Shown piece by piece: positions 638 through 28,804 of a stretch of DNA of 35,477 nucleotides (position 1 is its first letter; every line of letters begins with the position of its first letter). Position numbers and translations under genes: made by a program. The DNA is taken from the NCBI GenBank assembly GCA_028280565.1, contig JANQLQ010000048.1:1-35477 (forward strand). Direction: 5' to 3'. Under the pieces are notes generated by a model, which was given only the letters and a program-made list of their open reading frames with translations, was not told the DNA's origin and did not search any database. Origin of the DNA: Fulvivirga sp. (GTDB taxonomy: Bacteria; Bacteroidota; Bacteroidia; Cytophagales; Cyclobacteriaceae).

Positions 638-3010
638 ATGAAAATAAATATACTTAATACACCTTCTAAATACCTGCCGCTTTGCATACTGTTCTACTTA
701 ACGGTGCTATCCCCGGTGAGCCCGGTTAAGGCCCAGGTGTGGACCTACAGTTATCCAAACACCATCGTAAACAGCAATAGCTCATTGGTCAGGAAATCTA
801 CGATCTACGATGTTAAAGTTACGCAGGGAGCTACAACACAGGCCTGCTATGTGATGTATGATCTGAACCAGCAGTCCGTTACAGGAAACAACAATGTGAA
901 AAGAAACCCGGATAATCACTGGACCAACTTTTCCCTGCAAGGATCTGCTACCATCGAAATACAGCGACTGGATGGAGGCAATATTAATTCAGCTACTGTT
1001 TATCCATTGAAAAAAGGATTTACGGCATCCATCAATAACAATACAGCTACCATTAATATTCCTGCCGGAACCAATAAACTCCAGTTGTGGGTTGACATCA
1101 ATGGATTGAGTGACCAGCCCCTGTTTATCTTCGTGGATCCACCGGAAACGGATGTGCCTGATCCCAATTCGAGTGATGTTACCGTCATTAATCCAAGTGA
1201 CGGGATCAATACCGTAATTACTAAACTGAATAACAACGATACCTACGCTTATTTCGCCCCTGGGATACACCAATGGGGAGGTGGAACAGGCAGTGATTAC
1301 GACGGGTATATGCTACCCATTAAAGCCAATAAAAGGATATACATTCCAGGGGGAGCTTATGTCATTGGTTCTTTCAGTTCCGAAGATACCGGTGGATGGA
1401 AAGTGTACGGAAGAGGGGTAATTTCCGGGGCTGGCTTGGACATCCTGCCTACGGCAGCGTTTATCCCATGGTCAGCAGTACATCATACGGGCGGTAGAAC
1501 CGGGATGACCATTGAGGGCATCGTGTCCATGTGTCCTCCGCATTTCGCTTTGACGGTTCGTGGTACCGTAGACATTGACAATGTGAAAATGATGAGCTGG
1601 TGGCAGTCTACGGACGGGACCATCACTGGAGACAATTCTACGGTCAACAATTGCTTTTTCAAGGTCATGGATGATGGTATCAAGGCTTATGGAAACAATT
1701 GCACCCACGATAATAATACCATGTATCACCAGGTAAACGGTGCGCCTGTACAATTTTCCTGGCGTGGCCAGCATGGTGACAATAATACGGTGACCAATTT
1801 GTATATCATTAATAGCATTTATAAAGGCGTAGGCGCTGCGAGTAATACTGCTGTGATCAGTGTGGTGAGCCATACCCTCGGCCAAACTACCCGTGACAAT
1901 ACATTTGACGGCATCTACATAGACAATGGATGTCACAGGCTGTTGGGCATGGATGCCAGTTCCGGGTCCTACCAAAACTTCACGATCAAAAATGTAGAGC
2001 TCAATACGGGGAACAAATCAAAACCTCAGCAGGCGAATAGTTACCTAAGTGGGAACGCCAGCTTTTCCAATTTTGATGTAATCAATTTAAAGATCGACGG
2101 GCAGGATATCAATGGAACCAACAGCGTGAGTGACCAGCCCAATAATGGCAACTGGTGGTTTACAGGAAAAACCGGGCCCCTTTCTTTTAGCCAGGAGGCG
2201 GGTGGGGGCAATGTCCCGGACATTACTGACCTTTCCGCCTCTGCCCTTACTTGCAGCAGTGTGACACTTGCCTGGTCGGATGTAAGTGGTGAGACCGCTT
2301 ACCGGGTGAGGAGAAAGTTACCCGGGGAAAGCACTTTTACTAACCTTACCGATGTGTCGTCCAACGCCACTACCTATACGGATAATACCGTGGCTGAAAA
2401 TACGTCATACATCTACCAGGTACGGCCTGTAGTGAATGGCACTGCCATAGCCAACTCTAATCAGCTTTCGATCACTACGCCAGGCTGTGCTACCGCCACT
2501 ACCATCACTGTTACCGGGGTTACGCCAGGCTGCAATAGCAGTGGAAATGCGAGAAATATAATATCCTTTTCAGTAAGTGGCGGCAGCGCTACGCCTACCG
2601 TAAATCAAGGCACCATCCTGGATGATGGCAATGGGAACTACAGGGTGCGAGATATAGGCATAACTTTCGGAAGCACTACGAATTACACTATTTCTGCCGG
2701 AGGAACCTCTGTCAACCAATCGGTAACCGCTGTATCAAGTTGCAGTTCAGGAGCACGGGTGGCCAGCAAAACTACTACAGCTTTACCCGCGCTTACTACG
2801 TTCGTTACTTATCCCAACCCCGTGAAAAATGAGTTGATTTTCATCAAAGGTGCCATAGAGCAGCCACTGTCGATTGAAGTCATTGACGTAACGGGTAAAA
2901 TCGTCTTAAAAGAGGAAGTACAGGACCGTTTGGATGTAAGTAGGTTACACCCGGGAGTTTTTATACTGAGAGCGCCAGGCTTCCAACCCATTCGTTTTGT
3001 GAAACAGTAA
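638..3010 (+). CDS. Secreted GH49-like beta-helix glycosidase, T9SS cargo
   Basis: 790 residues. A signal peptide (about 1-32, ending VKAQ) is followed by a beta-sandwich segment and a right-handed parallel beta-helix (to about 520) with the features of glycoside hydrolase family 49 (dextranase, isopullulanase). D326 (STDG) and D345-D346 (MDDGIK) are spaced 19 residues apart, the same spacing as Asp376 and Asp395/396 in the Penicillium dextranase, so the catalytic carboxylates look intact. Then come an fn3 module (about 528-620), a second beta module (about 622-708) and a T9SS type A sorting domain (about 722-790, starting YPNPVKNE). The product is therefore expected outside the cell or on its surface. 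It is the first of four co-directional enzyme genes, 26 bp from the next. The exact substrate cannot be read; alpha-1,6-glucan is the classic GH49 target, but a sulfated marine glycan is plausible. Family call fairly firm, specificity open. Confidence 0.82.
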   Translation: MKINILNTPSKYLPLCILFYLTVLSPVSPVKAQVWTYSYPNTIVNSNSSLVRKSTIYDVKVTQGATTQACYVMYDLNQQSVTGNNNVKRNPDNHWTNFSLQGSATIEIQRLDGGNINSATVYPLKKGFTASINNNTATINIPAGTNKLQLWVDINGLSDQPLFIFVDPPETDVPDPNSSDVTVINPSDGINTVITKLNNNDTYAYFAPGIHQWGGGTGSDYDGYMLPIKANKRIYIPGGAYVIGSFSSEDTGGWKVYGRGVISGAGLDILPTAAFIPWSAVHHTGGRTGMTIEGIVSMCPPHFALTVRGTVDIDNVKMMSWWQSTDGTITGDNSTVNNCFFKVMDDGIKAYGNNCTHDNNTMYHQVNGAPVQFSWRGQHGDNNTVTNLYIINSIYKGVGAASNTAVISVVSHTLGQTTRDNTFDGIYIDNGCHRLLGMDASSGSYQNFTIKNVELNTGNKSKPQQANSYLSGNASFSNFDVINLKIDGQDINGTNSVSDQPNNGNWWFTGKTGPLSFSQEAGGGNVPDITDLSASALTCSSVTLAWSDVSGETAYRVRRKLPGESTFTNLTDVSSNATTYTDNTVAENTSYIYQVRPVVNGTAIANSNQLSITTPGCATATTITVTGVTPGCNSSGNARNIISFSVSGGSATPTVNQGTILDDGNGNYRVRDIGITFGSTTNYTISAGGTSVNQSVTAVSSCSSGARVASKTTTALPALTTFVTYPNPVKNELIFIKGAIEQPLSIEVIDVTGKIVLKEEVQDRLDVSRLHPGVFILRAPGFQPIRFVKQ

Positions 3011-3036
3011 AATAGGAGTATCCGAACCTAGTGGTT

Positions 3037-5313
3037 ATGACAAAAAAAATTACCATCATCCCGATGTTGGTTTTTGCCAACTATCTTCTATTCGCTCAAG
3101 TGGAAACGTATCCCAGTGACTATTCCAATACCAATATCTTGAAATCAGATATCTATGAAGTGACCGTAAGGCAGGCTGGGACTTCTTACCCGGCAATGGT
3201 GTATAAAAGCCAGTCCAATGGTCGTGTGAATGGAGGTCGCAATTCGGCGGTTCATAACAACTCTATTTCCTGGACTAACTTTTCCTTTTCAGGGACCGTC
3301 ACGGTGCAGGTGAAATTGCTGGATGGGCAAAACAAAGTTTCTTATGGTACAGCCAAGATTTTTCCGTCGAGACGAAACATTACTCCTGTGAAAATTAATA
3401 ATACCACCCTGGAATTTACGATCTCTTCCCCGGGTCAGTTTTCCGTCGAGTTCTCCGATACAGCATACGAGCATGGTTTGATGGTCTTCGCAGATCCTAT
3501 GGAAACCAGGGCGGCTCCGTCCGGTGCTGACGTGAAGATATGCAATGGTTGCTCTGCCTCTGACTTGAACGATCTAAGCGGCAAAACGGCTGTTTTTTTC
3601 AAAGACGCACATCACGATATTGGCATTTGGGAGATCCCCCCGGCTATCAAGGAAATATATATTGAGGGTGGAGCAGTAGTAGAAGGTGCACTACACCTTA
3701 AAAATACAGGTACGGGCAATGACAATACGCTCATTCACGGTCGTGGTATATTGGACGGTAGAAAGTACTACGACGCTGATCCGGACAACAAAAAGCATGG
3801 AATTGAGTCTTTCAACAACGTTAGCGGTACCACTGTAGAAGGAATTACTGTTTCCCAGGCAGGAGCCTTTTTTGTGCGCCTTCTTGGAACCAATAATACC
3901 ATAGATTGGGTGAAAACTATCGGGGGCTGGATATTTAATAACGATGGCTTTGTAGGATATCAAAATACCACTATTACCAATTGCTTTGTTTGGGCAAATG
4001 ACGATGGAATCAAATTGTACCGAGACAACCAGGCTATTGAAAACATTACCGCGTGGCATCTCACCAATGGGGGAGTGTTCCAATGGTGTTGGAATACCGT
4101 CTCGGCGAAAAATATTCGAGTAAAAAATGTGGATATCATTCGTGGACAGTGGCCCGGGGACGGAAGAAACCAGGGAGTCTTTAATATCCGTGGGAGTTCG
4201 GCCAATAACGGGCTACAAGAACAAACCGATTGGGTATTTGAGGATATCTATATTGATAACCCTGTAAAGGTGTTGTTCAATTTGGCGCCCCAGGTAGCAC
4301 ATAATGTCAACAACATGGAGTTCAATAACATCCATGCAAAGACTACTCCCGATGTTATCAATCGCATTAAAGGGTTCAATGCCTCCAATAAATTGGATAA
4401 CATCAGGATCAATAACCTTACGATCAATGGTACTTGCATAGATGACAACACTAAGAACACTGTAGGAAACTTCGAAATCACTAATACTACGAATATAAAC
4501 TTCAGTTGTCAGCAGGCAACACCTTCTAATATTAGCGATTTAGCCGCTACAGCTACCTCTTGCGATGCAGTAAGCCTCACATGGAGTGATACTAATGGAG
4601 AAACCGCTTACCGGGTGCGAAGAAAACTTCCTCCTGATGCAGCCTTCACCAACCTGGCCGATATAGGTGCTAATGCAACCTCGTACACGGATAATTCCGT
4701 ATCAGCCAGTACTACTTACATTTACCAGGTACGCCCCGTGGTGAATGGTACAGCTGTGGCCATTTCCAATCAACCTCCGGTGACTACGCCGGGCTGTGTT
4801 ACCATCACTATCGCTATTACTGGGGTTACAACGAACTGTAATGGTAGCGGAAACGCGAGAAATATCATTTCCTTTTCAGTAAGCGGCAGTAACACCACGC
4901 CGACTGTAAACCAGGGAACCATCGTTGATGATGGTAATGGCAACTACAGGGTGCGGGACATAGGTATAGCTTTCGGAAGCACAACCAATTATATCATTTC
5001 CGTTGGCGGAACCTCTGTCGATCAGCCTGTAACTGCGGTGCCAGGGTGTGGTACGGGGGCCAGGAAAGCATCAAATGATAAAGGGAGTCTCCTACTTCCC
5101 GGGGAAGCTTCACGGGTTCTCTATCCAAACCCAGTGCAGGGGATACTACACCTGCAGGGTTTGGGTGTGGACGGTGACCTGTACCTGGTGAACGTGAATG
5201 GAACTGTCCTTAAAAAAGTTAAGGGCCAAAAGTCCTTGGACATGAGTACATATTTACCAGGCATTTATTTCTTAAAGACCGGTCAAACCACGTGGAAGAT
5301 CATAAAACAATGA
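3037..5313 (+). CDS. Second GH49-like beta-helix glycosidase, T9SS cargo
   Basis: 758 residues from the ATG at 3037; a GTG at 3031 would add two residues, and TAGGAG at 3013-3018 could serve either. The short signal peptide ends near FAQ. The body is a divergent paralogue of the preceding enzyme: same N-terminal sandwich, then beta-helix with D303 (NNDG) and D322-D323 (NDDGIK), again 19 residues apart. The C-terminus repeats the same order: fn3 (about 498-587), the second beta module (about 588-675) and a T9SS domain (YPNPVQG, ending GIYFLKT...IIKQ). The accessory domains are much closer to those of the neighbour than the catalytic domains are. The pair probably attacks different linkages or chain lengths of one polysaccharide. 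Gap to the next gene is 28 bp, so co-transcription is likely. Confidence 0.8.
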   Translation: MTKKITIIPMLVFANYLLFAQVETYPSDYSNTNILKSDIYEVTVRQAGTSYPAMVYKSQSNGRVNGGRNSAVHNNSISWTNFSFSGTVTVQVKLLDGQNKVSYGTAKIFPSRRNITPVKINNTTLEFTISSPGQFSVEFSDTAYEHGLMVFADPMETRAAPSGADVKICNGCSASDLNDLSGKTAVFFKDAHHDIGIWEIPPAIKEIYIEGGAVVEGALHLKNTGTGNDNTLIHGRGILDGRKYYDADPDNKKHGIESFNNVSGTTVEGITVSQAGAFFVRLLGTNNTIDWVKTIGGWIFNNDGFVGYQNTTITNCFVWANDDGIKLYRDNQAIENITAWHLTNGGVFQWCWNTVSAKNIRVKNVDIIRGQWPGDGRNQGVFNIRGSSANNGLQEQTDWVFEDIYIDNPVKVLFNLAPQVAHNVNNMEFNNIHAKTTPDVINRIKGFNASNKLDNIRINNLTINGTCIDDNTKNTVGNFEITNTTNINFSCQQATPSNISDLAATATSCDAVSLTWSDTNGETAYRVRRKLPPDAAFTNLADIGANATSYTDNSVSASTTYIYQVRPVVNGTAVAISNQPPVTTPGCVTITIAITGVTTNCNGSGNARNIISFSVSGSNTTPTVNQGTIVDDGNGNYRVRDIGIAFGSTTNYIISVGGTSVDQPVTAVPGCGTGARKASNDKGSLLLPGEASRVLYPNPVQGILHLQGLGVDGDLYLVNVNGTVLKKVKGQKSLDMSTYLPGIYFLKTGQTTWKIIKQ

Positions 5314-5341: not shown

Positions 5342-8053
5342 ATGAAAAAGAGCATAAGACTGTTGACCCTACTATTTACTTGGTCAATTGCCATACAGCT
5401 TAGTGCCCAACAAAAAAATGTCCTCCTTATTGCAGTAGACGACCTCAACGACTGGGTCGGAGCGTTTGGAGGGAATAACCAGGCGATCACGCCAAACATA
5501 GATGCCCTGGCTGCCAAAGGAGTGGCCTTTCAAAACGCCAGCACTGCTTCGCCCGTATGTAACCCGTCGAGAACGGCCTTGCTTACGGGAAGGCGACCTC
5601 ATGAAACGGGCATTACCACCAACCAAGATGGGTTTAACTTCAGGGATAGCCCCGAAGCGTGGATAAGCGACCTGGTCACCCTACCCCAGTATTTTAGTGC
5701 CAATGGGTACGAAAGCGTGGGCCAAGGAAAGATATTCCACACGCATCGTTCCAACCCGGAATCCTGGGATATCCTGGGGCCGGGTGGGCAAGGAGCAAAT
5801 GGGGGTACCAATACAACGGTCGGAACGACCGGTATGAAATACGGGTGGTCACAACAAAACATCGAACAGACGGGTGACTGGAAAAGTGCTGATTATGCTG
5901 CTAATTATCTACTGCAAAACCATGATAAGCCTTTTTTTCTGGCGTGCGGTATTTTCAGGCCTCACCTGCCGTTTTATGCTCCCCAATCCTTTTACGACCT
6001 ATACGACGTTAACAACCTCAATCTTCCGCAAGGATACCAGCCCAATGATCTTGATGATACATTTGGCGGGTCCAATAATTTTCTTGCCGAAGTACAGCGA
6101 GTGGGGGAGTGGAAAAATGTAATTGAAGCCTATTTAGCCTGTATGTCTTTTGCAGATGCCGCCGTAGGACATTTGCTTACAGCGCTGGAAAACAGTCAAT
6201 ATGCGAACAATACGATTGTAGTCCTTTATGGGGATCACGGCTGGCACCTGGGGGAAAAGGAACATTTTAAAAAGTCAGCACTTTGGGAAAGAGCGGTAAC
6301 CACTCCGCTGATCATTTACGATCCGTCCGGGGGTAGTGGCAATAACTTCAATGCCGTGTCCTTGCAGGATGTCTATCCGACGTTGGTCAGGTTAGCAGGG
6401 CTGCCTGACCCTTCTTTTACCATCAGGGGCAGGGACCTTAGCCCACTGGTAGAAAATCCGCGCGCTGACTGGTGTGGTGCAGCACTAACTTCTTATAGGA
6501 CTGATGATCATTCTTTGAGGTCTGACCGGTATCGCTACATCAGGTTCGGCAATGGTAACGAAGAACTTTATGATCATCAAACAGACCCTTTTGAATGGAA
6601 TAACCTGGCTACGGATAGCGCTCATGCCGTCGCAAAACAGGAAATGCTCACGGCCATGAACGCTATGCTCAATCACGATGAGACACCGTTTGAGCAGTGT
6701 GGCCCGGTGCAAACAGGCCAGCTAATTCCTGGAAAAATAGAGGCTGAGTCTTATTTGACACAGTCCGGGGTACAAACCCAGCCAACTACAGATACGGGTG
6801 GCGGCCAGCATGTGGGGTTTATTGATACCGGTGACTTCATGGACTATGGAGTGGAGGTAGCTTCTTCGGGAAACTATAATGTATCCTTCCGGGTTGCCTC
6901 TAACGCAAATAACATCCGGTTAGACCTGGAGAGCGGCGGTACAGTATTAACCAGTGTCAACAGCACAACGACCGGAAGCTGGCAAACGTGGAAAACCGTC
7001 ACGCAGGCCATCACCCTATCAGCAGGACAGCAAACCTTGCGCATCCGGGCCACAGGAGGGGGCTGGAATATCAATTGGATGGATTATGTACCTGCTACAC
7101 CGCCGTCTCTTAATGTTAATGACCTTTCGGTCAATGCCACAGCCTGTAATTCGGTGACACTTACCTGGAGTGATGTAAATGGAGAGGAGGGCTACCGGGT
7201 AAGGAGGAAACTAGACGGCGCAAGTACTTTTACGACGTTAACGGATATTGCCGCCAATAGTATTTCCTATGTTGACAATACCGTAGCAGAGAGCACCTCT
7301 TACACCTACCAGGTAAGAGCATTGGTAGGCGGTAGCGCGGCTGGGGCCTCCAATCAACCCGGTGTGACTACGCCAGCCTGTTCTTCCGGGGGCGGGGTAG
7401 TATTTATTGATCATAACTCCAGCACCCAGCGATTAAAAGCTAATGCTTCCGGTGGAGCAGTAGGTGTAAAGACGGCCACTTCAACAGGAGCGAATGTACA
7501 GTGGGACCAGGTGGATGCCGGCGGAGGCTTTTTCTATTTGCTGCACCAGGGAAGTGGCAACAAGCTACATAGCAGCGATGGGTTGACAGTGAACACCACT
7601 GCACCTTCAGCTACGGATAACAATGTGCAATGGAGCTGGGTAGATGCCGGGGGGGAATGGTACAGGCTGGAGCATAAAGGTAGCGGTACCTGGCTGCATG
7701 CCAGGCAGGATGCTACAGATTTTCGCCTGGCGCCCACGAGTTGGACCGGTGATAATACAAGGTGGAAGTTTGCTAATGTGTCTGCACCAGCAGCAAGGTT
7801 AGCCTCAAAGGAAGGAGAAAAACCTGTTGAGCCAATAGAGCTCGACAACGTAATTATTTATCCTAATCCTGTACAAAACATTCTTGAGATCGACGGGATC
7901 ACCACCTATTCCAGGATTAAGATCTACAACTCGTCTGGAACAGAACTTTTGAATAGGGTAGGTAAGGATAAAATTGACGTATCCTCCTTTGAGCAAGGTA
8001 TATACTTTCTAAAAATTGATAATGAAAAAACCATTCGCTTCATAAAGATCTGA
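5342..8053 (+). CDS. Secreted sulfatase with CBM6, fn3, trefoil, T9SS domains
   Basis: 903 residues. Signal peptide about 1-22 (LSAQ). The type I sulfatase domain (about 24-455) has metal ligands D33-D34 (VDDLND), the formylglycine motif C73-N-P-S-R, and a second metal/active-site block around D298-H299 (YGDHGWHLGEKEH). It resembles iduronate-2-sulfatase-like enzymes. Cys73 must be converted to formylglycine by a maturase not encoded in this window. A CBM6-like carbohydrate-binding module follows (about 462-590, starting KIEAESY), then fn3 (about 592-682), a three-lobed beta-trefoil, ricin-like module (about 686-815) with repeated 'W..VDAGG..Y.L.H.GSG..L', and a T9SS sorting domain (about 838-903). 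It should remove sulfate esters from the PUL substrate outside the cell. Which sulfate position it cuts cannot be told. Confidence 0.9.
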   Translation: MKKSIRLLTLLFTWSIAIQLSAQQKNVLLIAVDDLNDWVGAFGGNNQAITPNIDALAAKGVAFQNASTASPVCNPSRTALLTGRRPHETGITTNQDGFNFRDSPEAWISDLVTLPQYFSANGYESVGQGKIFHTHRSNPESWDILGPGGQGANGGTNTTVGTTGMKYGWSQQNIEQTGDWKSADYAANYLLQNHDKPFFLACGIFRPHLPFYAPQSFYDLYDVNNLNLPQGYQPNDLDDTFGGSNNFLAEVQRVGEWKNVIEAYLACMSFADAAVGHLLTALENSQYANNTIVVLYGDHGWHLGEKEHFKKSALWERAVTTPLIIYDPSGGSGNNFNAVSLQDVYPTLVRLAGLPDPSFTIRGRDLSPLVENPRADWCGAALTSYRTDDHSLRSDRYRYIRFGNGNEELYDHQTDPFEWNNLATDSAHAVAKQEMLTAMNAMLNHDETPFEQCGPVQTGQLIPGKIEAESYLTQSGVQTQPTTDTGGGQHVGFIDTGDFMDYGVEVASSGNYNVSFRVASNANNIRLDLESGGTVLTSVNSTTTGSWQTWKTVTQAITLSAGQQTLRIRATGGGWNINWMDYVPATPPSLNVNDLSVNATACNSVTLTWSDVNGEEGYRVRRKLDGASTFTTLTDIAANSISYVDNTVAESTSYTYQVRALVGGSAAGASNQPGVTTPACSSGGGVVFIDHNSSTQRLKANASGGAVGVKTATSTGANVQWDQVDAGGGFFYLLHQGSGNKLHSSDGLTVNTTAPSATDNNVQWSWVDAGGEWYRLEHKGSGTWLHARQDATDFRLAPTSWTGDNTRWKFANVSAPAARLASKEGEKPVEPIELDNVIIYPNPVQNILEIDGITTYSRIKIYNSSGTELLNRVGKDKIDVSSFEQGIYFLKIDNEKTIRFIKI

Positions 8054-8138: not shown

Positions 8139-10319
8139 ATGAAAACAATTGAAACTAAACAGTTATGGATTGGCAAGAGCAACGCTCGAATTGCATTGAC
8201 ATGTATGTTGGTGCTTTGCTTTTTGGTGAGTACCCATGTACTTGCCCAAGTGAACTTCCCCGGGGGAAGGATAGCGATGAGCTATGACGGTAACGAAAAT
8301 GACCTGGACGACTATGGTGCCATGCCACTGGCGATTGCTATGGTAGCAAAAGCCGGGTTGGCAGACAAACTGGTTCACATAGAACATGGTAATACGATCT
8401 GTGAAAACAATGCAAATCGTTCGAACCGGATGAACCAACTCTGTGAGGGAGCGTTGCAACGCTTCGGACCTTTTCCAAATGTAAAGGAGTACCAGGTCCG
8501 GGGTGGAGAGCGAAATGCTGCCAGCGATAACTTGGCGGCCGAAATTAATGCTTCTTCTGCCAATGACCCACTCTGGATCATTGCTGCAGGCCCTATGACC
8601 ACCGTGGCAGAAGGCATTCGCAAAGCACAGGTAGGCAAGCGACAGCATGTGATTGTGATCTCTCATTCAAAATGGAACGAAAATTATGATCGCTGCAACA
8701 ATCATACGGATTGGGCTGAAATGAAAAATGAATTCAATGGAGATGGTGTCCACTTCATCGGTAACGAGGGTGATGAAGGAACCGTCAGGCCCAATAATGT
8801 CAATAAGCTGGCTAACCAAAACAAAAGTAACGGGGACAATGACTTTAATGCCCCCGATAACAAATGGGCCTGGCTACGGGACAGCAGCAACCCTGACTAT
8901 CGTTGGCTTTGGGAGAATGATGAGAAAAACGGCTACGATGTATCAGATGCCGGCATGACGTACTTTTTGATAACAGGGGGTATTAACCTGGCCAGGACCC
9001 AAAAGAGCGGGTGTGAAACTTGTGGTTCAACCGAAACGGAGCAATTATTTGCAGGCAGCGGTTGCCAGGCGACCCAGGATATCACTGATTTGAGTACGTC
9101 GGTGACCCCGGGTTGTGCCATTGAACTTACCTGGAGCGACGTAAGCAACGAGACTACCTACAGGGTGAGAAGAAAGACAGCCTCAACCAGCTTCATCATC
9201 CTAACAGATCTTGCTGCCAATACGACAAGTTATGTAGACAATACTGCGCAAGAAGGCGTTACCTACACGTACCAGGTAAGGCCCCAGAACAGTTGCAGCA
9301 ACCAAGTCTCCAACCAGCCCAATGAAACCATCCCAACGGGCTGTGGTACTTCCGGGGGACCTTCGGACATTAATGACCTGGCCCCTTCCAGTGTTGCGTG
9401 TGATGCTGTCACACTGACTTGGTCAGATGTAAGCGGTGAGACGGCATATCGTGTACGGAGAAGGCTCACTTCTGCCGCCACTTTTACCACACTTGCGGAT
9501 GTGAGCGCTAATGTAACCACCTACACGGATAATTCAGTAGCGGAAAGCACTTCGTATATTTACCAGGTGAGACCGGTAGTCAGTGGTACGGCTGTTGCCA
9601 CTTCTAATCAACCCCAGGTAGATACACCACCTTGTGGCTCGACCGGTGGCGGTGTGGTATTCATCGACCACAACTCCAGTGGCCAGCGCTTAAAAGCCAA
9701 TAGTTCAGGAGGCGCCGTAGGTACAAAAGCAGCAACTTCAACAGGCACCAATGTCCAATGGGACCAAGTAGATGCTGGTGGTGGATATTTCTACCTCGTA
9801 CATGTAGGCAGTGGTAATAAACTCAACGCCACTACCAATGGCGATGTGATCAATACCGTGTCAGCGACCAGTACAGCCAATAGTGCACAATGGAGATGGA
9901 TAGACGCCGGGGCAGGCTGGTTTAGACTGGAGAACAGGCAATTTACCGAATGGCTACATGTAAAACCCGATGGCGTCACCGATTTTGCACTTGGACCCAT
10001 CACCTGGACGGGTGACAATACCAGGTGGACGTTCACGAATGTGAGTGGCGTAGCCGGTGGTCGGACAAATGGAGAAAAGATCCAGGGAGTTGAGGACGAA
10101 GCCGAAATTGCAGGTAGAGCCGTACTGTATCCTAACCCCGGAAGTGATGAGCTGATCCTAAGAGGAATTGCTAAAGACGCTGAAGTCAGGCTTTTTAACC
10201 AGGGGGGCATTGAAGTGATGCGTTTCATCGGCGACAAGGCGGATATACGTGCCTTACCTTCAGGAATGTATTTTGTGAGAAGCAATAATGAATACTTTGG
10301 AAGATTTATTAAGGAATAA
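8139..10319 (+). CDS. Nucleoside-hydrolase-fold enzyme, fn3 x2, trefoil, T9SS
   Basis: 726 residues. Signal peptide about 1-36 (VLAQ). The N-terminal domain (about 37-310) opens with YDGNENDLDDYGA, which matches the Asp-rich calcium-binding start of the inosine-uridine nucleoside hydrolase fold (DxDxxxDD type); further blocks are WIIAAGPMTTV and VISHSKWNEN. Related domains occur in secreted cellulose-binding proteins of the Sde182 type, where the role is not nucleoside salvage, so a glycosidase acting on a polysaccharide is an inference. Then two fn3 modules (about 314-404 and 410-500), a trefoil module like that of the sulfatase (about 507-635), and a T9SS domain (about 660-726, YPNPGSDE...GMYFVRS). 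It lies 85 bp after the sulfatase and is the last gene before a terminator. Confidence 0.72.
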   Translation: MKTIETKQLWIGKSNARIALTCMLVLCFLVSTHVLAQVNFPGGRIAMSYDGNENDLDDYGAMPLAIAMVAKAGLADKLVHIEHGNTICENNANRSNRMNQLCEGALQRFGPFPNVKEYQVRGGERNAASDNLAAEINASSANDPLWIIAAGPMTTVAEGIRKAQVGKRQHVIVISHSKWNENYDRCNNHTDWAEMKNEFNGDGVHFIGNEGDEGTVRPNNVNKLANQNKSNGDNDFNAPDNKWAWLRDSSNPDYRWLWENDEKNGYDVSDAGMTYFLITGGINLARTQKSGCETCGSTETEQLFAGSGCQATQDITDLSTSVTPGCAIELTWSDVSNETTYRVRRKTASTSFIILTDLAANTTSYVDNTAQEGVTYTYQVRPQNSCSNQVSNQPNETIPTGCGTSGGPSDINDLAPSSVACDAVTLTWSDVSGETAYRVRRRLTSAATFTTLADVSANVTTYTDNSVAESTSYIYQVRPVVSGTAVATSNQPQVDTPPCGSTGGGVVFIDHNSSGQRLKANSSGGAVGTKAATSTGTNVQWDQVDAGGGYFYLVHVGSGNKLNATTNGDVINTVSATSTANSAQWRWIDAGAGWFRLENRQFTEWLHVKPDGVTDFALGPITWTGDNTRWTFTNVSGVAGGRTNGEKIQGVEDEAEIAGRAVLYPNPGSDELILRGIAKDAEVRLFNQGGIEVMRFIGDKADIRALPSGMYFVRSNNEYFGRFIKE

Positions 10320-10478
10320 CTAACCCTGCTTTGTCAAGTTTTTGCCTGGAGATAAAGTTCGTCAGTGCTGGCAGGAAAATATGAAATCAGGAATATGAAA
10401 ATGATTAGATCTTTGATTTCAAGCACTTGACTTCATTGTCTAAGATGACAAAGTAGAGGCTAAGAATGATTAAGGAGC

Positions 10479-10513
10479 AAAAGCCATCCCATTAAAGCAA
10501 AGGGATGGCTTTT
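10479..10513 (+). terminator. Rho-independent terminator of the enzyme operon
   Basis: AAAAGCCATCCC (10479-10490) pairs perfectly with GGGATGGCTTTT (10502-10513) around an 11-nt loop and is followed by TTGTTGTTTT. It lies 160 bp after the stop at 10319. It separates the four T9SS-exported enzymes from the sigma factor gene. Confidence 0.8.
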
Positions 10514-21293: not shown

Positions 21294-24200
21294 TGGATCG
21301 GTCAATGAATAAATTGTTGATGAATTGCCTGTGCAGCTATGTGACCGGATGCAAGAAGTATGAGATGCTCTTTCGGGCGGCAGGCATGGTCATGATCATT
21401 ACGGCAGTCACATGGCCATTACAGGCGCAGCATGCTACATTTACAGGCCCGGGTGCTATTCGCTGGGATTATGTCAATGGCTATGCAGAAGTATCAGGAG
21501 GTGCAAAGACGTTCACCAGTTATGTTCCTGCCTTTGACAAGCGGTCGGATGAATCGGAGATAAGCAAGATGCTCCAGCTTGACCTGGAAGAGGTGCTGAA
21601 GATCCAACTGCGTATGAAAGAGTTCGGATTGCTGGCGGCCACCCAGGCTGGGGTAACGGTAGACCTGGAACTCTTCGCCTACGACCCAAATGCCAGCGGT
21701 GGAATTGGAAATGCCCTATACCAGGTAACGCTGCCGGTTAGCTCGCCTACCTCCTATGAAGGAAGTGTATCAAAAATCACCTATGACCTGACCCAGCCTC
21801 ACTTTGATGAGCAAAAGTTGGACTATTTTGACTCCGACAATATCCTGCAGATGATGAAAGGGGCCAGGCTGTATTATTGGTCTACCTGTAAGCAGGCCAT
21901 CCAGGCCCGGGACTCACATTACTTTACCAGGCATCGCTCTAACGGGGTGCTGTATCATTTATGGGGTGGGTTTTTGCGAGGTATGGCACATGATACGTAC
22001 CTGGGAGACCGCTTGATGCGTTTTCCATGTGGCAGTAACCAGCGCATGCGCTATCAGCCGGTGATCATGAAAATTACCAAGCATGGAGATGGGCTGGCCC
22101 ACCTAAAAAAAGTAAAGATCCCCGGGTTGGGTGAAAAAGATGTGACAGCACTGTTCGGTATAGGCATTACGGCCAGCACACCGAACCTCAGCGGCCTCAC
22201 CGATCCTAACCCTGACCGGACCGAGAATATCGCTTTCTACAAGGACCTCGGAGGCATCCAGGTCAACAAATACTATTGGGGTCCGATCAACGATGAAAAT
22301 CATGTTCCCTATTGGATACAGGCACCGGTAGAGGCTGAGAAGTACCTGGAAGGGCAGGGGATCACGATGGCGAAGATGGACCTTTCCGATCCTTCCAAAT
22401 ACCGGGGGCTGTATGATCTAAAATTCACCTACCGCTTTAAAAACCCGGCAGAGCGGGGAACGCCTAATGTACCGGTAGGGGGTGACGTTATCCCGGAAGA
22501 GTGTATGTATGCGGATAAACCGCTTGGCGGCCAATTCGATATACTTAGCCACGCCGCAGCGCGCGAGGGCGCCATCTTCGGCATCAATGGTACATATTAT
22601 GATTATTACTATCGCTGTATCCCCAGTATCCGCCAATACATCAAGGTGAACGACCAGGTCATGGCTTATCCAACGGTCACGAGCCATAAGCTTCAAGGAG
22701 CGTTCGCATTCGATTTCAGCCAAACGCCGCCGGTCAGGTTCCAGGCGGTGGATATTCATAACCCCAATGCTACGGATGCCCATCCTGATAACCTGGGTAG
22801 CTATACGGAGCCGAATATTTTTCGTGAGTTGCAGGGGTATCCTAACATCATGTCCGGCGGACATTATTCGTACATTCGGCCGGACGGTACCAAATCGATC
22901 TATGAATTCCAGGTACCGCTGGAATGCCAGGACGGGCAAACACACCCATGGCCTAACCTGGTGAGCGACGCTACGAACTATCCGTTTGAAGAAGGGCAGA
23001 ATGGCAACTACATGGTAAATGACTGGAAAACGTTAAAATGGATCGTAGACCCGAACAATAACGAAGGCTGGTTTTACCTTGCCTGCCAGCGCAGCGCAGA
23101 TGGGTATAACGGCTACTACAAGGATTTTTTCAGGTGTGATAAACTGGACCCGGGTACGCAATATTATGAGCAGTACCGAAGCCTGTTCACTTGCATTGAT
23201 TCCTACCGCGCTGTGGACGAATTCGGAGGACAAAACCGACAGATCCGGAAAGCACGTACGTTTGTGGCCTGGAAAAATGACCAGCTCTATTTTGTTACGG
23301 TGGATGGAATGCGCCGGGTAAAAAATAAGAAAGATGAGCAGGGCAATGACATTGGGGGAACCGTAAAAGATGACAGCCAATGGGGCTTTACCATCGAAGA
23401 GCTCGGCAGATTTTTTGACCAGATGGGCTTTGAAAACCTTGTTCACATGGATGGAGGTACTTCCACGGAGTTTTTTGTGAATGGCCGGGGTATGTTACAA
23501 CGTACCATTAAGTCGTTCGCTACACTCGACGGGCCTTTACGTCAGCGTTACACGTCAGCTTTTATCCTGGTAGTGCCGGAGCTTAATGTAGATGAGATAG
23601 AAGGGATCGGCTTCAATAAACAGTTTCTTGAACTGGATAACCTGGATCCTCTTAAAGAAAATAAAGCGATTTTAAGCCTTACGCCTTCTTTGGCAAAGCT
23701 CACGGAACATGACGGCGAAGGGCTATTAACCTCCTCGTTCAAAGTGGATCAAACCGAACCGGCGGACGGAGCCGTCATTTTCTCACTGAGCCATGATACT
23801 TATGAGCATGCCCAGTCGCTGTTTGTAGCGGGTGTAGGTAAGATCCCGGCATCGCTGGCCGATAGCCTGGAAGGATATGAGGTCTGCGATGACACTGAGC
23901 GTGTCGCATACCGCAGGGCGCTAAGCAGGAATAACCAGGCCTTCTACCAGGTAAGGGTTGAAAATAATGAGGTAGTAAGCTGGTCATTTACGGCACCCGG
24001 TCAATACCAAAAATACCTGGACGGTCAGTGGCATACGTTTGCATTGTATAACCTCCGGGACCGTGAGGGGTTGGTAGTGGATGGTGAAGTTTACCCGCAG
24101 TCACGTTCCTACCAGCCGGGTACGCCTTTCTTTAACCTGGGCCATCTAACCCACGGTATGATGGGAGGTATGATGCTGGGAGGGCGCTACATTGTAGGTC

Positions 24201-24628
24201 AAAGTAAGCTGTCACTGGATGACGTCGGTTTTATAACCAATAGTGAACAACTGGAGCTTTTGGCCCGGGAGACAGCGGATTGCAATGCGTTGGAAACTTC
24301 ACTGGTAGCACTTACGTCAGCAAAGCAATCCTACCCTATGGCAGGTATTTATCCAGGGTGGCACCAAGCTGGGGGAGCCTACTTTTTAACCATGGAGGAA
24401 CAGAAGGGTATGCATGCCTTTGCGGCTGACACCCAAGGACGTAACAAGTTTTGGGGACTTATGCTGCATGGTGAGCGTAACCTTCATGCTCAAAATGAAC
24501 GGTTGAGGTTCAGTAGCCACTGGAATAATGGGAACACCTCCCGCTATGGAGCCCACAGGTTCATAAATCCGCCGTTAGGTAACGGTTTTATCACGGGCAG
24601 TGTATCAGAAGAATTAAATCAGCCATGA
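21290..24628 (+). CDS. Phosphodiester glycosidase (NAGPA/DUF2233 type) with accessory domains
   Basis: 1112 residues, far longer than a bare DUF2233 domain. Signal-like segment about 25-47 (ending LQAQ). Residues about 50-400 are not recognised. The phosphodiester glycosidase domain spans about 415-770: FGINGTYYDYYY near the start, then WGFTIEELGRFFDQMGFEN and the hallmark MDGGTSTEFF (D721-G-G), then RYTSAFILVVP. The family includes the mammalian enzyme that removes GlcNAc from GlcNAc-1-phospho-6-mannose, so the expected reaction is cleavage of a sugar-1-phosphate diester at the glycosidic side. The C-terminal 300 residues (about 813-1112) match the N-terminal half of the next protein, including a 'VGKIPASL', 'DGQWHTFALY' LamG-like part. 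No T9SS domain. Starts within the previous stop (ATGATGA) and overlaps the next gene by 4 bp: tight translational coupling. Confidence 0.82.
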   Translation: MMDRSMNKLLMNCLCSYVTGCKKYEMLFRAAGMVMIITAVTWPLQAQHATFTGPGAIRWDYVNGYAEVSGGAKTFTSYVPAFDKRSDESEISKMLQLDLEEVLKIQLRMKEFGLLAATQAGVTVDLELFAYDPNASGGIGNALYQVTLPVSSPTSYEGSVSKITYDLTQPHFDEQKLDYFDSDNILQMMKGARLYYWSTCKQAIQARDSHYFTRHRSNGVLYHLWGGFLRGMAHDTYLGDRLMRFPCGSNQRMRYQPVIMKITKHGDGLAHLKKVKIPGLGEKDVTALFGIGITASTPNLSGLTDPNPDRTENIAFYKDLGGIQVNKYYWGPINDENHVPYWIQAPVEAEKYLEGQGITMAKMDLSDPSKYRGLYDLKFTYRFKNPAERGTPNVPVGGDVIPEECMYADKPLGGQFDILSHAAAREGAIFGINGTYYDYYYRCIPSIRQYIKVNDQVMAYPTVTSHKLQGAFAFDFSQTPPVRFQAVDIHNPNATDAHPDNLGSYTEPNIFRELQGYPNIMSGGHYSYIRPDGTKSIYEFQVPLECQDGQTHPWPNLVSDATNYPFEEGQNGNYMVNDWKTLKWIVDPNNNEGWFYLACQRSADGYNGYYKDFFRCDKLDPGTQYYEQYRSLFTCIDSYRAVDEFGGQNRQIRKARTFVAWKNDQLYFVTVDGMRRVKNKKDEQGNDIGGTVKDDSQWGFTIEELGRFFDQMGFENLVHMDGGTSTEFFVNGRGMLQRTIKSFATLDGPLRQRYTSAFILVVPELNVDEIEGIGFNKQFLELDNLDPLKENKAILSLTPSLAKLTEHDGEGLLTSSFKVDQTEPADGAVIFSLSHDTYEHAQSLFVAGVGKIPASLADSLEGYEVCDDTERVAYRRALSRNNQAFYQVRVENNEVVSWSFTAPGQYQKYLDGQWHTFALYNLRDREGLVVDGEVYPQSRSYQPGTPFFNLGHLTHGMMGGMMLGGRYIVGQSKLSLDDVGFITNSEQLELLARETADCNALETSLVALTSAKQSYPMAGIYPGWHQAGGAYFLTMEEQKGMHAFAADTQGRNKFWGLMLHGERNLHAQNERLRFSSHWNNGNTSRYGAHRFINPPLGNGFITGSVSEELNQP

Positions 24629-26847
24629 AAAGTATCACTTATATAAAATTAGGTCGTTATAGACAGTTATTGGTACTATGCTTCCTACTGGTGGCTTCAT
24701 GGAGCATGGTCCGGGCGCAAGTGGGCCATCAGTCTCAAAATGAAAAGATGGTTGCGTTAAACAATGTCCACCTGGATGGCGCGCAGTACAGCCTGGCCTC
24801 TTCCGACACCCTGGGCAAATGGGATGGCTTTTACCAGTGGCCCAATGTAGCTACTATTGACCTCACGTCGAGTCTGAACAAAATGAGCATCGATGGGACA
24901 GAAAACGGGCTGATACTCGGTTCATTCCATGTGGATGAAAAAAGTGAGGGAGCGGTGCTGTTTTCCATGAGCGAAGACTTTGCGATGGTGACAGACGGTG
25001 AGTTTTTGAATAAAGAAGAAACCGGTGCTGAGCCACCGGGTTATGCGCAAAACCAGGGTGAGATTCGGAATCTACTCGTGCTTGGCGTAGGTAAAATACC
25101 CGGTGACCTCATGAGCCAATTGGCGATCTATGCTACCCCCAACTCGCAATCGCATACGAATTACCAGGATGCACTGGCTGCCAATAACCAGTCGGTATAT
25201 GCCATCGTGGTGAATGATAGTGTAGTAACACAGTTTCTATTCGGTACCAGTACGGTGGATTACCTCGACAATGACTGGCATAACTTTGTGTTGTACGCTT
25301 TTCCATCAGGGTTGACCGGCGCTCAGGACCTCCATGAAGTAGCTGCTGACGCTTTTCAGCTCGTGATTGATGGTGAGGTAGTGCATACGCAGGCGCTCTA
25401 CAGGTCTGAAGGCCGTGTGCATAACAGGTTTTGGGATGTGGGCTTCTCCCAATACCAGGTGCATACGGTAAAAACACCACGGCATAACATAACGCATTCG
25501 CTCATTGGAGGCATCAATTTGAGAGGGAAAGTGGTGACCGGCGTTAAAAGCGATCTCCAGGTAGATAACTTTGGGTTCTTTGTTGGCGCAGATCCCATCC
25601 ATAAGCTGAAAACAGCGCTGACCGGTGCGGGTAACCAGGCCAAAATGAGGCATTTGAGTGAAAGCATTGGAGTGAATGACCTCGGGATTCCTTCAAACCT
25701 GTTCGATGAGGTTAATGACCCGGCATGGGGAACGGACGCATTTTACTTGCAGTGTGAATCACCCGGTAAGCGACACGTAGTTTCCGTAGATCGAACAGGT
25801 GGGAGCGAGCCGGCTTTTTATGGGTTGATAAACCATGGACTGAAAACGGAGCATGTTAACCCAACCCAGCAAGCGCATTTGGCCTATTACACGGATTGCA
25901 GTGTGCCGCTGCCGGCCAATGCCACAAAAATGGACGAAACACTAAAAATACTGCGTTGTCCTCAAAACTACCCGGATTATAAGATGGTGGTATCGCACCG
26001 TGGTTATCATCGTGATGTTCCGGAGCATTCCTTACCGTCAGTAAATTATGCAGTAGAGCTGGTGGAAAATGGCTATGCTGATTTTATCGAACTGGATGTA
26101 AAGTTCACCAAAGACTTACAGCCCGTCTTAACGCATGACAAGTATTTTGAGCTGTTATCGAATGGTCCTGCTTACCCGGCGAACATCAACGACACAAAAT
26201 GGAGTGAAGTAAAAAATTATCACCTGAAAGATTACCAGGGAAATGTGACGACTCACAAATTCGTGCACCTGGAACAGGCCATGCAGATCATCAAAGGCAA
26301 ATCCTACCTATTACTGGACATCAAAGCGGCTTCAGCCGGGCTGTATAAAGACAGGGCCTTACGTTGCCTTAAAATAGCAGACGAGCTAGGTATGCTGCAT
26401 CAGATCATCATAGGAGGAGGATCGTGGCACCTGGAGAGGATACAGGAGGAATATGCCGGGTACTGGGGGCGCTTTATTTATCTGCCTTCTGTAAAGGACC
26501 CGTCAAGAAAGGACAATCCTAAGGACCACCTGGATGCGTTTATCACCGCAGGTATGGCGCCGGTGATAGGAGCCCGGTTTAAGACGGAGGATTACAACAT
26601 CTTACAGCCTTTCAATTACGTGGATTATATTAATGATAATAATATCCGCGCCATGATCTTTAGCCGCTGGCCGGATTTTTTGGATGCCAATAACCGTGAC
26701 GGGCACCAGAAAATAGATGTAGACCCCTCCACCGACTACCGGGGTAACTGGGACTTCCTGATAGAAAACGGCAGCTCGGTGATCACCACTGACCGGCCTA
26801 TGCTGATGCACCAGTACCTGGAAGCACAGGGATTAAGGACCAAATGA
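24625..26847 (+). CDS. GDPD phosphodiesterase with long accessory N-terminus
   Basis: 740 residues. Signal peptide about 1-32 (VRAQ). Residues about 99-440 match the C-terminal part of the upstream phosphodiester glycosidase: 'VDEKSEGAVLFSMSED', 'LGVGKIPGDL', 'DNDWHNFVLYA', and a second block beginning FYLQCESPG that parallels YFLTMEEQKG. The catalytic domain (about 455-740) is GDPD: VVSHRGYHRDVPEHSLPS, DFIELDVKFTKDLQPVLTHD and, near the end, GSSVITTDRPMLMHQYL. It differs from the other GDPD of the locus in having E-H-S instead of E-N-S after the HRG motif. No T9SS domain. Coupled by ATGA to the gene before and 28 bp before the next. It would hydrolyse phosphodiesters, presumably after or together with the upstream glycosidase. 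Confidence 0.83.
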   Translation: MKSITYIKLGRYRQLLVLCFLLVASWSMVRAQVGHQSQNEKMVALNNVHLDGAQYSLASSDTLGKWDGFYQWPNVATIDLTSSLNKMSIDGTENGLILGSFHVDEKSEGAVLFSMSEDFAMVTDGEFLNKEETGAEPPGYAQNQGEIRNLLVLGVGKIPGDLMSQLAIYATPNSQSHTNYQDALAANNQSVYAIVVNDSVVTQFLFGTSTVDYLDNDWHNFVLYAFPSGLTGAQDLHEVAADAFQLVIDGEVVHTQALYRSEGRVHNRFWDVGFSQYQVHTVKTPRHNITHSLIGGINLRGKVVTGVKSDLQVDNFGFFVGADPIHKLKTALTGAGNQAKMRHLSESIGVNDLGIPSNLFDEVNDPAWGTDAFYLQCESPGKRHVVSVDRTGGSEPAFYGLINHGLKTEHVNPTQQAHLAYYTDCSVPLPANATKMDETLKILRCPQNYPDYKMVVSHRGYHRDVPEHSLPSVNYAVELVENGYADFIELDVKFTKDLQPVLTHDKYFELLSNGPAYPANINDTKWSEVKNYHLKDYQGNVTTHKFVHLEQAMQIIKGKSYLLLDIKAASAGLYKDRALRCLKIADELGMLHQIIIGGGSWHLERIQEEYAGYWGRFIYLPSVKDPSRKDNPKDHLDAFITAGMAPVIGARFKTEDYNILQPFNYVDYINDNNIRAMIFSRWPDFLDANNRDGHQKIDVDPSTDYRGNWDFLIENGSSVITTDRPMLMHQYLEAQGLRTK

Positions 26848-26875: not shown

Positions 26876-28804
26876 ATGTATTTAAAAGAAAATAAACTGA
26901 AATGGTCACGATTGCCGTGGGGGTGGATAGTATTGTTTACGATCATTACCTTCCCTCCGGCGGTGGCACAGGTAAAGCCTTTGGCCCATTATCCATTGGA
27001 TGTACGTATGATCACCCGGCCTCCTGACCTGGATAAACAGTATATTTTGAGACCCTATGACGTTTCAGGCAGAGGCGCTCATGGTGACTTTGACTATATC
27101 AAAAAGCCAGCCGTTACCAACTTCTTATCGGTTCCGGGAGGGAGTGTGCACTGCCTGGACGTTCAAAACGGTGATCGTGTGAGATTAGACATACCCGAAC
27201 CTTACGAGGGAGTGACCTCAACGAGTACATATTCCATTAGCTTCTGGCTGTATTGGAAAGGAGGGGGCAGTGCCAGGGAGATACTGGCTACCGGTGATAA
27301 AAAGATACGTGTACATGACCGGGACCTGGAATTCACCTATCGCAACGTGCTATCAAATTATAAAGTCACTATTTCGGATTACTTCTCTAACGAGGGCTGG
27401 TATCATGTAGCCTTTGTCAAATCCGGGGCTAATAGTTATCATTATTACCGGTTTATTTATGCTAATGCACCTCCGCAGGCGGCCTCTGCGGTATACCATT
27501 CAGCGGGTAATTCAAGTCACATTACCCATGAAGATTATACACCCAGCCTGTTAGGAGATACCTTCGAGGGGAAGCTTTATGGGGTACGGTTTTTTAAAGA
27601 AGGATTGACAAAAACGCAATTGGATGCACTAACACACCGTGATTACCAATGGGCACAGGCCGTTCCTGCCCTTGGTGCCGGTGCCGCTGAACATTATGTG
27701 GATCGGGGTGCGTTTGCCTACTATCCTATGGTGGCGGCAGCGTCTCCTGCCTCAGAGCGTGCATACCTGGATTGTGTAACAGCAGGAGGTACAGGCTGCA
27801 GCACATCAAAAAACGGCAGTATGATAGGTACGGCGACTATAGTAGATGAATCCGGACGTCAATGTGCCGAATTCGATCCGCAAGCGGCCATCAGCTTGCT
27901 AGGAAGTCATACCAGCTTACGTGACTTCCTGGGCAATTATGATGGTAAAAAAGGGCTTACTTTTTCCTTTTGGACCTATATCGACGCTTTTTTGACCCAT
28001 GCGCATTCCGTGCAAAATTCCTTTGGACAAACGGATACCTGGCATACCTTTTTCGGAGGTATTACCGAAACAGGCCCCAATGATCCTGACCATTTCACAT
28101 TGGGGGTACATCGCATACATGACCTGGTAGGAGTTACCCGTCATATCAAAAATGACCCTACACAGCCCTGGCTGCTTTGGATGTATAAGCCAGCCTCCTT
28201 TACACATACCACGGGTTGGTATCATGTAGTACTGGCCTATGAGCCCAAATCAATGACTCTTTACTCTATCTATCCCGATGGAACGGTAGATGGACGATAC
28301 AATTTTTTCGGAACAGAAGACCAGGACCTGGACGCCGTTCAATTCTTTGCCATCGGCAGTATGATCTATAGCAGTGACAGGCGTTCCGCCAGGTATATCG
28401 ATGATTTCAGAATATACAACTGGGCCATGACGCCAAACGAAGTAAAAGCGTTACACGCCTATGAAGCTAGTTTTCCCAATGCTACCCCACCAGGCAACCA
28501 ACGACTGGGTACACCTGGAATGGCATCCGGTAAAGAAGCAGAACAGGATCACCCTTTTTCCGTCTACCCTAATGCCACAAGGGGAGAGTTAAACATACAG
28601 ATGTCGTTAGAAAGGGATGCTGAGGTCACCATTGAAATGTTAGACCTGGCAGGAAAACTGTTATATCATACCAAAAAACTAGGAAATGCCGGCACCCAGG
28701 TAATCCGGCTAAACCTGGCCAACAAGGTGAAAACAGGCTTACATTTACTGCGCGTGACTTCCGAAGATATTTACGAGGTCCGTCGTATCCTGGTCAAAAA
28801 CTAG
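26876..28804 (+). CDS. Two-LamG-domain T9SS secreted protein
   Basis: 642 residues. Signal peptide about 1-32 (AVAQ). Two concanavalin-A/laminin-G-like sandwiches: the first about 33-260 (YSISFWLYWKGG, then GWYHVAFVKSG and LYGVRFFKEGLT), the second about 275-540 (LTFSFWTYIDAF, TGWYHVVLAYEP, RYIDDFRIYNWAMTPNEV). A T9SS sorting domain closes the protein (about 565-642, VYPNATRGELNI...GLHLLRVTS). No catalytic motif is visible, so a secreted carbohydrate-binding protein is likely. It is the last gene of the locus, 28 bp after the GDPD gene and before a terminator, and the only protein in the downstream block with a T9SS domain. Confidence 0.8.
   Translation: MYLKENKLKWSRLPWGWIVLFTIITFPPAVAQVKPLAHYPLDVRMITRPPDLDKQYILRPYDVSGRGAHGDFDYIKKPAVTNFLSVPGGSVHCLDVQNGDRVRLDIPEPYEGVTSTSTYSISFWLYWKGGGSAREILATGDKKIRVHDRDLEFTYRNVLSNYKVTISDYFSNEGWYHVAFVKSGANSYHYYRFIYANAPPQAASAVYHSAGNSSHITHEDYTPSLLGDTFEGKLYGVRFFKEGLTKTQLDALTHRDYQWAQAVPALGAGAAEHYVDRGAFAYYPMVAAASPASERAYLDCVTAGGTGCSTSKNGSMIGTATIVDESGRQCAEFDPQAAISLLGSHTSLRDFLGNYDGKKGLTFSFWTYIDAFLTHAHSVQNSFGQTDTWHTFFGGITETGPNDPDHFTLGVHRIHDLVGVTRHIKNDPTQPWLLWMYKPASFTHTTGWYHVVLAYEPKSMTLYSIYPDGTVDGRYNFFGTEDQDLDAVQFFAIGSMIYSSDRRSARYIDDFRIYNWAMTPNEVKALHAYEASFPNATPPGNQRLGTPGMASGKEAEQDHPFSVYPNATRGELNIQMSLERDAEVTIEMLDLAGKLLYHTKKLGNAGTQVIRLNLANKVKTGLHLLRVTSEDIYEVRRILVKN

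What the first reader, a model, noticed from the sequence alone, without database searches (positions are those of the whole stretch)
638..28804. PUL that joins sulfatase and GH49-like enzymes to three phosphodiester-cleaving enzymes
Seen: two GH49-like enzymes, a formylglycine sulfatase, a nucleoside-hydrolase-fold protein, SusC/SusD with sigma/FecR, and then two GDPD enzymes and one phosphodiester glycosidase in one block. Known: SusC/D loci group enzymes for one glycan; NAGPA/DUF2233 enzymes cut sugar-1-phosphate diesters and GDPD enzymes cut glycerophosphodiester-type bonds. Inference: the target is a sulfated glycan with phosphodiester-linked sugar or glycerol substituents or bridges, a substrate class with few described PULs.
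Basis: partly seen in the sequence, partly recalled or inferred. Interest (0 to 1): 0.75.

Follow-up and report, generated by a model that had tools for sequence, protein, structure and literature searches.

The report
Two neighbouring nutrient-uptake gene clusters
What looked like one gene set for an unusual sulfated and phosphorylated sugar polymer is more likely two separate sets side by side, one for a sulfated sugar polymer and one for scavenging phosphorus-linked molecules.

Summary
The genes are present as described: two GH49-like enzymes, an S1 sulfatase, sigma/FecR, SusC/SusD, two GDPDs and one NAGPA domain. The nucleoside-hydrolase call is only sub-threshold. They probably do not form one locus. 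A strong predicted terminator (10476-10516) separates block A (638-10319: GH49, GH49, sulfatase, g4) from block B (10965-28804: sigma-FecR-SusC-SusD-GDPD1-g10-NAGPA-GDPD2-LamG). Elsewhere each half recurs without the other. GH49-like genes sit with sulfatase-like genes in 3 of 3 other loci examined, once fused, with no GDPD, NAGPA or SusC/D match there. GDPD1-type genes share an operon with SusD in 54 of 77 loci, and no GH49 match was found in 80. Block B is best read as a PUS-like locus that imports and cleaves glycerophosphodiesters, extended by a rare NAGPA/GDPD module. NAGPA with GDPD and SusC/D was found in one other locus. An N-terminal region of the NAGPA enzyme is weakly similar to that of a GDPD-like enzyme in another genome. 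The 'sulfated glycan with phosphodiester bridges' inference is not supported; the phosphodiester part is. Caveats: block A starts near a contig end, so its own SusC/D may be missing; there are no expression data.

The parts
638..3010 (+). block A g1: GH49-like, FN3-like, T9SS tail
   Evidence: Pfam GH49N 21.4 bits (cut-off 21.3), T9SS; 6nzs dextranase 9e-14
3031..5313 (+). block A g2: GH49-like, T9SS tail
   Evidence: GH49N 38.5 bits; dextranase 9e-19, isopullulanase 6e-18 and 1e-17
5342..8053 (+). block A g3: S1 sulfatase + CBM6 + T9SS tail
   Evidence: CNPSR motif by eye
8139..10319 (+). block A g4: possible nucleoside-hydrolase-like domain, ricin-B-like, T9SS tail
   Evidence: PF01156 E 0.012, sub-threshold; ricin-B-like match 2e-9
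10476..10516 (+). predicted intrinsic terminator between blocks A and B
   Evidence: 15-bp stem, loop 11, U tail; -25.6 kcal/mol, z -5.2, 0 of 200 shuffles; inverted repeat expected 0.01 times by chance
10965..11540 (+). block B ECF sigma factor
11607..12614 (+). block B FecR anti-sigma
12750..16361 (+). block B SusC
16358..17758 (+). block B SusD
   Evidence: relatives
17819..18808 (+). block B GDPD1 (GDPD + DUF4996)
   Evidence: H77, E104, D106, H119 invariant in 11 rows
18978..21293 (+). block B g10: fibre-like protein with a C-terminal region common in this genome
   Evidence: 14 other matches on 7 other contigs of the own genome
21290..24628 (+). block B g11: NAGPA-type enzyme
   Evidence: NAGPA residues 646-737; motifs INGTYY, RTFVA, VDG, DGGTST align with NAGPA proteins
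21500..22390 (+). g11 N-terminal region without Pfam match, weakly similar to the N-terminus of a GDPD-like protein in L169
   Evidence: 22% over 327 aa, blastp 8e-5 one way and 0.047 the other; no Pfam match
24625..26847 (+). block B GDPD2: N-terminal region shared with the g11 C-terminus, then GDPD
   Evidence: GDPD residues 458-594; 28% over 348 aa to g11
26876..28804 (+). block B g13: LamG domains + T9SS tail
28842..28871 (+). 12-bp hairpin after g13, possible end of operon B
   Evidence: fold of 28805-28950: z -2.8, 2 of 200 shuffles as good; not found by the terminator script

Best explanation
Two adjacent, separately transcribed loci. Block A is an outer-surface module: T9SS-secreted GH49-like hydrolases and an S1 sulfatase that attack a sulfated glycan. 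Block B is a phosphodiester-acquisition locus, PUS-like but under a sigma/anti-sigma switch. SusC/D binds and imports small phosphodiesters, probably deacylated phospholipid or glycosyl-glycerophosphate headgroups. GDPD1 cuts them in the periplasm to glycerol-3-phosphate plus an alcohol. The exported NAGPA-type g11 and GDPD2 trim larger or glycosylated phosphodiesters outside first. FecR/sigma induces the operon when substrate is at SusC. Shown: gene content, a predicted terminator, recurrence of SusD-GDPD1. Inferred: separate transcription, substrates, locations of the enzymes, direction of flow.
For: SusD lies in the operon with the GDPD1-type gene in 54 of 77 resolved loci, and directly upstream in 29 of 78 against 24 of 711 other ORFs of the same loci, core PUL genes and GDPDs excluded (Fisher p 5e-18). 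In the 10 other genomes with a DUF4996 match, a SusD match is next to the gene in 6 and in the same-strand gene run in 8. GlpT-like matches occur in 10 of 80 loci; the query, from G351, is nearest to PgtP/UhpC/GlpT models but below their cut-offs. PafA (above cut-off) follows GDPD1 in G182. PI-PLC-C1 and alkaline phosphatase follow a SusC/D-GDPD1 locus in G138. The own genome (C328) has FecR-SusC-SusD-GDPD1 and a congener (G407) sigma-FecR-SusC-SusD-GDPD1, without GH49 or sulfatase matches in the stretches examined. Terminator 10476-10516. Sulfatase-GH49 fusion in G610. Lidbury et al. 2020 (PMC8115612; passages incl. abstract) describe low-phosphate-induced SusCD-like complexes with phosphodiesterases (PUS).
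Against: No expression data; a terminator can leak. The closest SusD relative (G249, 49%) has no GDPD match within the 40 kb fetched, and only 2 of the 8 best non-self SusD neighbourhoods have one. Some GDPD1 operons contain glycosidases (GH92 in 6, arabinofuranosidase C-domain in 4, GH20 in 3 of 92 neighbours scanned), so a phosphorylated glycan substrate stays possible for block B. No phosphatase or GlpT-like gene was identified in the window. Block A has no SusC/D in the window and begins 638 bases from a contig end, so its own pair may be off the contig, or it may use block B's.
Confidence: 0.72

Rival explanations
1. One PUL for a sulfated glycan with phosphodiester-linked substituents: GH49 and sulfatase cut the backbone, NAGPA and GDPDs remove the phosphodiesters, all feeding the single SusC/D.
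For: All genes on one strand, contiguous; block A has no SusC/D in the window. NAGPA + GDPD + SusC/D also occurs in L190, and GH92/GH20 glycosidases occur in some GDPD1 operons.
Against: No GH49 match in 80 GDPD1 loci; no GDPD, NAGPA or SusC/D match in the 3 other GH49 loci; predicted terminator between the halves.
Confidence: 0.15
2. Block B alone is a glycan locus for phosphodiester-linked glycoconjugates (for example teichoic-acid-like or glycerophosphoglycosides), with NAGPA removing sugar-1-phosphate diesters and the GDPDs removing glycerophosphate.
For: NAGPA domain with conserved motifs between GDPD1 and GDPD2; L190 precedent; a NAGPA gene beside a GDPD gene, without SusC/D, in G002; glycosidases in other GDPD1 operons.
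Against: No glycoside hydrolase other than NAGPA was identified in block B; the NAGPA combination is in 1 of 80 other GDPD1 loci; GlpT- and PafA-like neighbours in other loci point to simple organophosphates.
Confidence: 0.25
3. g10-g11-GDPD2-g13 is a separate surface module that merely follows the SusC/D-GDPD1 operon.
For: 169-bp gap before g10; g10-like genes precede giant proteins on three other contigs of this genome.
Against: No stable fold in 18810-18958, 149 of the 169 gap bases (z 0.41); g10-like proteins plus a large GDPD or GDPD-like protein also lie downstream of GDPD1 in L157 and L169.
Confidence: 0.25

Closest known systems
PUS, phosphate utilisation systems of Flavobacterium (Lidbury et al. 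2020, PMC8115612; passages incl. abstract)
   Same: SusCD-like pair next to exported phosphodiesterases. PI-PLC-C1 (pf16670) is in PUSI and also follows a SusC/D-GDPD1 locus in G138. PhoA1 of PUSII carries pf13653, which I recall as a GDPD-related domain.
   Different: The PUSI diesterases are pf00149 and pf16670 proteins, not PF03009 GDPDs. Block B has sigma/FecR, NAGPA, fibre-like and LamG genes, and phosphate control is untested.
Classical PUL with sigma/anti-sigma
   Same: ECF sigma, FecR, SusC, SusD, exported hydrolases.
   Different: No glycoside hydrolase identified downstream of SusD other than the NAGPA domain.
GH49 dextranase / isopullulanase
   Same: GH49N domain and similarity over the catalytic region to 6nzs, 1wmr, 3wwg.
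   Different: Paired or fused with S1 sulfatases, so probably a sulfated substrate.

Membership tests
PUS (phosphate utilisation system) | SusCD-like pair co-located with phosphodiesterase or phosphatase genes | tested here: met
PUS (phosphate utilisation system) | induction by phosphate depletion | not testable with these tools
   no expression data
single PUL spanning 638-28804 | conserved synteny of GH49 + sulfatase with GDPD + NAGPA + SusC/D | tested here: not met
   no GH49 match in 80 GDPD1 loci; no GDPD, NAGPA or SusC/D match in 3 other GH49 loci
single PUL spanning 638-28804 | no transcription stop inside | tested here: not met
   terminator predicted at 10476-10516; sequence prediction only
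GH49 | GH49N domain and GH49 catalytic-region similarity | tested here: met
   g1 barely above cut-off; no PF03718 match was returned; catalytic aspartates not checked
S1 sulfatase | sulfatase domain with C-x-P-S-R | tested here: met
   motif by eye (motif recalled)
GDPD | catalytic His, Glu, Asp, His kept | tested here: met
   GDPD1; GDPD2 (residue roles recalled)
NAGPA / DUF2233 | score above Pfam cut-off and conserved motifs | tested here: met
   34.1 bits against 25, profile positions 82-152 of 169 only; motifs, with DGGTST in place of DGGGST
nucleoside hydrolase | IU_nuc_hydro domain or fold for g4 | tested here: inconclusive
   PF01156 E 0.012, below cut-off; unusable model

The most novel reading that the evidence does not exclude
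Block B is a SusC/D locus dedicated to glycosylated glycerophosphodiesters: an undescribed N-terminal domain carries either a NAGPA or a GDPD catalytic unit to the same substrate at the cell surface, so that sugar-phosphate and glycerol-phosphate bonds are cut before import.
Probability: 0.2. Interest if true: 0.65.

Novelty: new variant of a known kind. Interest (0 to 1): 0.42.

Why it matters
SusC/D pairs are usually read as sugar importers. A recurrent SusD-GDPD unit, often with sigma/FecR, in many Bacteroidota species suggests a large set of SusC/D systems for organic phosphorus. PUL annotation by proximity would mislabel them as glycan loci, as probably happened here.

Tried and rejected
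Rejected: one PUL for a sulfated phosphoglycan (no synteny, predicted terminator). Led nowhere: g11 relatives in viral contigs and genome contigs (both need exact short peptides), in 395 phylum genomes and 98 relatives (both counts include the window's own genome, the only one with a match); a two-row profile of the g11 N-terminus matched only the own genome among 241; structure models of the g4 N-terminus and the g11 N-terminal region had pLDDT 36.5 and 37.4, so no fold search was run; L157 did not align usefully with the g11 N-terminus. Promoters: the sigma-70 scan found 32 sites against 28.2 expected, and the recalled Bacteroidota motif TAnnTTTG was found only after g13, not upstream of either block, so promoters say nothing either way. 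The consensus terminator scan with loops up to 8 missed 10476-10516 and found 19 sites against 19.9 expected. Papers: GH49 with sulfatase and PUL gave 2 (one opened, passages) and 0, of no direct use; DUF2233 terms gave 3, none opened. Searches for SusC/D with glycerophosphodiesterases or PUS (listings of 4, 7, 12 of 71, 12 of 532 and 12 of 44) showed the PUS papers; from these open-licence searches I cannot say that SusC/D-GDPD operons are undescribed. PMC12758843 (passages) mentions a GDPD inside one PUL of Flavobacterium IR1. PMC8812569 was read as passages only. Rows dropped: 3 of 80 loci whose focal ORF was not resolved; 32 of 124 operon neighbours not scanned because of the size limit, and only the first 25 of 85 families were shown.
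Full report
Observation. g11 itself has no NCBIfam or PDB sequence match. The nucleoside-hydrolase label for g4 is only a sub-threshold match, and its single-sequence model is unusable.

The block is probably two blocks. Between g4 (ends 10319) and sigma (10965) lies a predicted intrinsic terminator at 10476-10516. It has a 15-bp stem and a U tail, folds at -25.6 kcal/mol with z -5.2, and none of 200 shuffles folds as well. A script that allowed loops up to 14 found three such sites on both strands of the window, and this is the only one between genes; five mononucleotide shuffles, scanned on one strand, gave none. The consensus scan with shorter loops had missed it. A second hairpin follows g13 (28842-28871, z -2.8), and 149 of the 169 bases before g10 show no stable fold (z 0.41). 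This is a sequence prediction, not expression evidence.

Block A recurs without block B. Relatives of g2 were found in 2 of 98 genomes counting the own one, and the GH49N family in 2 of 261 counting the own one. That gives three other GH49 loci: G404:C124, G000:C251 and G610:C8. All three hold sulfatase-like neighbours. In G610 a sulfatase is followed by a g2 homologue, and another protein carries both a sulfatase domain and a g2-like GH49 region in one chain. With window proteins and eight NAGPA references as queries, no GDPD, NAGPA, SusC or SusD match appeared in the stretches fetched (16.9 kb; the whole 45.7-kb contig; 40 kb). C251 also has GH43 and GH2 enzymes. None of the three shows a SusC/D pair either, so this module may work without one nearby; in the window it begins 638 bases from the contig end.

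Block B recurs without block A. The own genome (C328) carries FecR-SusC-SusD-GDPD1 and a congener (G407) sigma-FecR-SusC-SusD-GDPD1, with no GH49 or sulfatase match in the stretches examined. DUF4996 occurs in 11 of 395 phylum genomes, own included. In the 10 others a SusD match is next to the gene in 6 (once with an 83-aa ORF between) and in the same-strand gene run in 8. Best-match labels in these 80 loci are SusD 60, SusC 60, FecR 35, sigma 33, GlpT 10, PafA 2, NAGPA 1, g10-like 4, sulfatase-like 2. No g1, g2, g4 or g11 match of any rank was found in them. Of the two sulfatase-like hits, L146 looks by eye like a phosphodiesterase-type protein. With the operon defined as same strand and gaps under 300 bp, SusD is present in 54 and SusC in 52 of 77 resolved loci. 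SusD is directly upstream of GDPD1 in 29 of 78 against 24 of 711 other ORFs in the same loci (Fisher p 5e-18; ORFs and loci are not fully independent). Neighbours that point to organophosphate use are a GlpT/UhpT/PgtP-like transporter (L101, below model cut-offs), PafA (L104, above cut-off) and PI-PLC-C1 with alkaline phosphatase (L106).

Results against this reading. The closest SusD relative (G249, 49%) has no GDPD match nearby, and only 2 of the 8 best non-self SusD neighbourhoods do. Some GDPD1 operons contain GH92 (6), arabinofuranosidase C-domains (4) and GH20 (3) among 92 of 124 neighbours scanned, with 25 of 85 families shown. A glycosylated phosphodiester is therefore a live option for block B.

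The accessory module. g11 keeps the NAGPA motifs but its only matches in 395 and 98 genomes are itself and GDPD2 of the window, and the genome-contig scan, which needs exact short peptides, found none. Its N-terminal region is weakly similar to the N-terminus of a protein in L169 (22% over 327 aa, blastp 8e-5 one way and 0.047 the other; phmmer 0.0017) whose GDPD domain is itself sub-threshold (19.7 bits, cut-off 23.6). Its C-terminus matches the N-terminus of GDPD2 (28%, 2e-21 in a nine-sequence set). In L157 (SusC but no SusD match) g10-like proteins and a tandem GDPD follow GDPD1; in L169 a g10-like protein and the GDPD-like protein lie further downstream. g10-like regions give 14 other matches on 7 other contigs of this genome, on three of them before giant proteins, so g10 may be a general surface accessory. 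NAGPA with SusC/D and GDPD1 occurs in one other locus, L190. Among 30 NAGPA loci of about 3 kb, one has a GDPD match beside it (G002, no SusC/D match in 20 kb) and one a SusD match.

Comparison with known systems. Lidbury et al. 2020 (PMC8115612; passages incl. abstract) describe PUS clusters: SusCD-like complexes beside phosphodiesterases, induced by phosphate depletion. Block B resembles these, but its enzymes and its sigma/FecR control differ, and phosphate control was not testable. I file it as a PUS-like variant, not as a tested member.

Verdict. Observation partly confirmed, interpretation partly supported. The most likely reading is a sulfated-glycan module next to an independent phosphodiester-acquisition locus.

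Noticed in passing
L204:3733-7503 (G610:C8): One protein with an N-terminal sulfatase domain and a C-terminal g2-like GH49 region.
   Followed up: partly
G000:C251 (L043, L200): GH49-like gene among five Pfam-confirmed sulfatases, two GH43 and a GH2 in the first 20 kb, with a further GH43 and genes that look by eye like L-arabinose isomerase and ribulokinase beyond.
   Followed up: partly
window 29020-29514: Two pairs of direct repeats (149 and 98 nt, 89% and 86% identical) after block B.
   Followed up: no
G000:C124, C191, C167 (L193-L195): g10-like genes before giant proteins of about 2700-3000 aa; one region looks RHS-like by eye.
   Followed up: no
G000:C104 (L199:9317-16201): A second NAGPA domain, in a protein of about 2300 aa; no GDPD or SusC/D match in the stretch fetched.
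   Followed up: no
L046:13115-15005 (G407:C94): The congener's SusC/D-GDPD1 unit lies next to a homologue of the window's cation-efflux gene, in the other relative orientation.
   Followed up: no
L157:11193-20806: Five g10-like genes in a row before a tandem-GDPD protein of 1077 aa and a SASA-type esterase.
   Followed up: partly
L205:9514-11153 (G002): A NAGPA gene directly followed by a GDPD-like gene, without SusC/D matches in 20 kb.
   Followed up: partly
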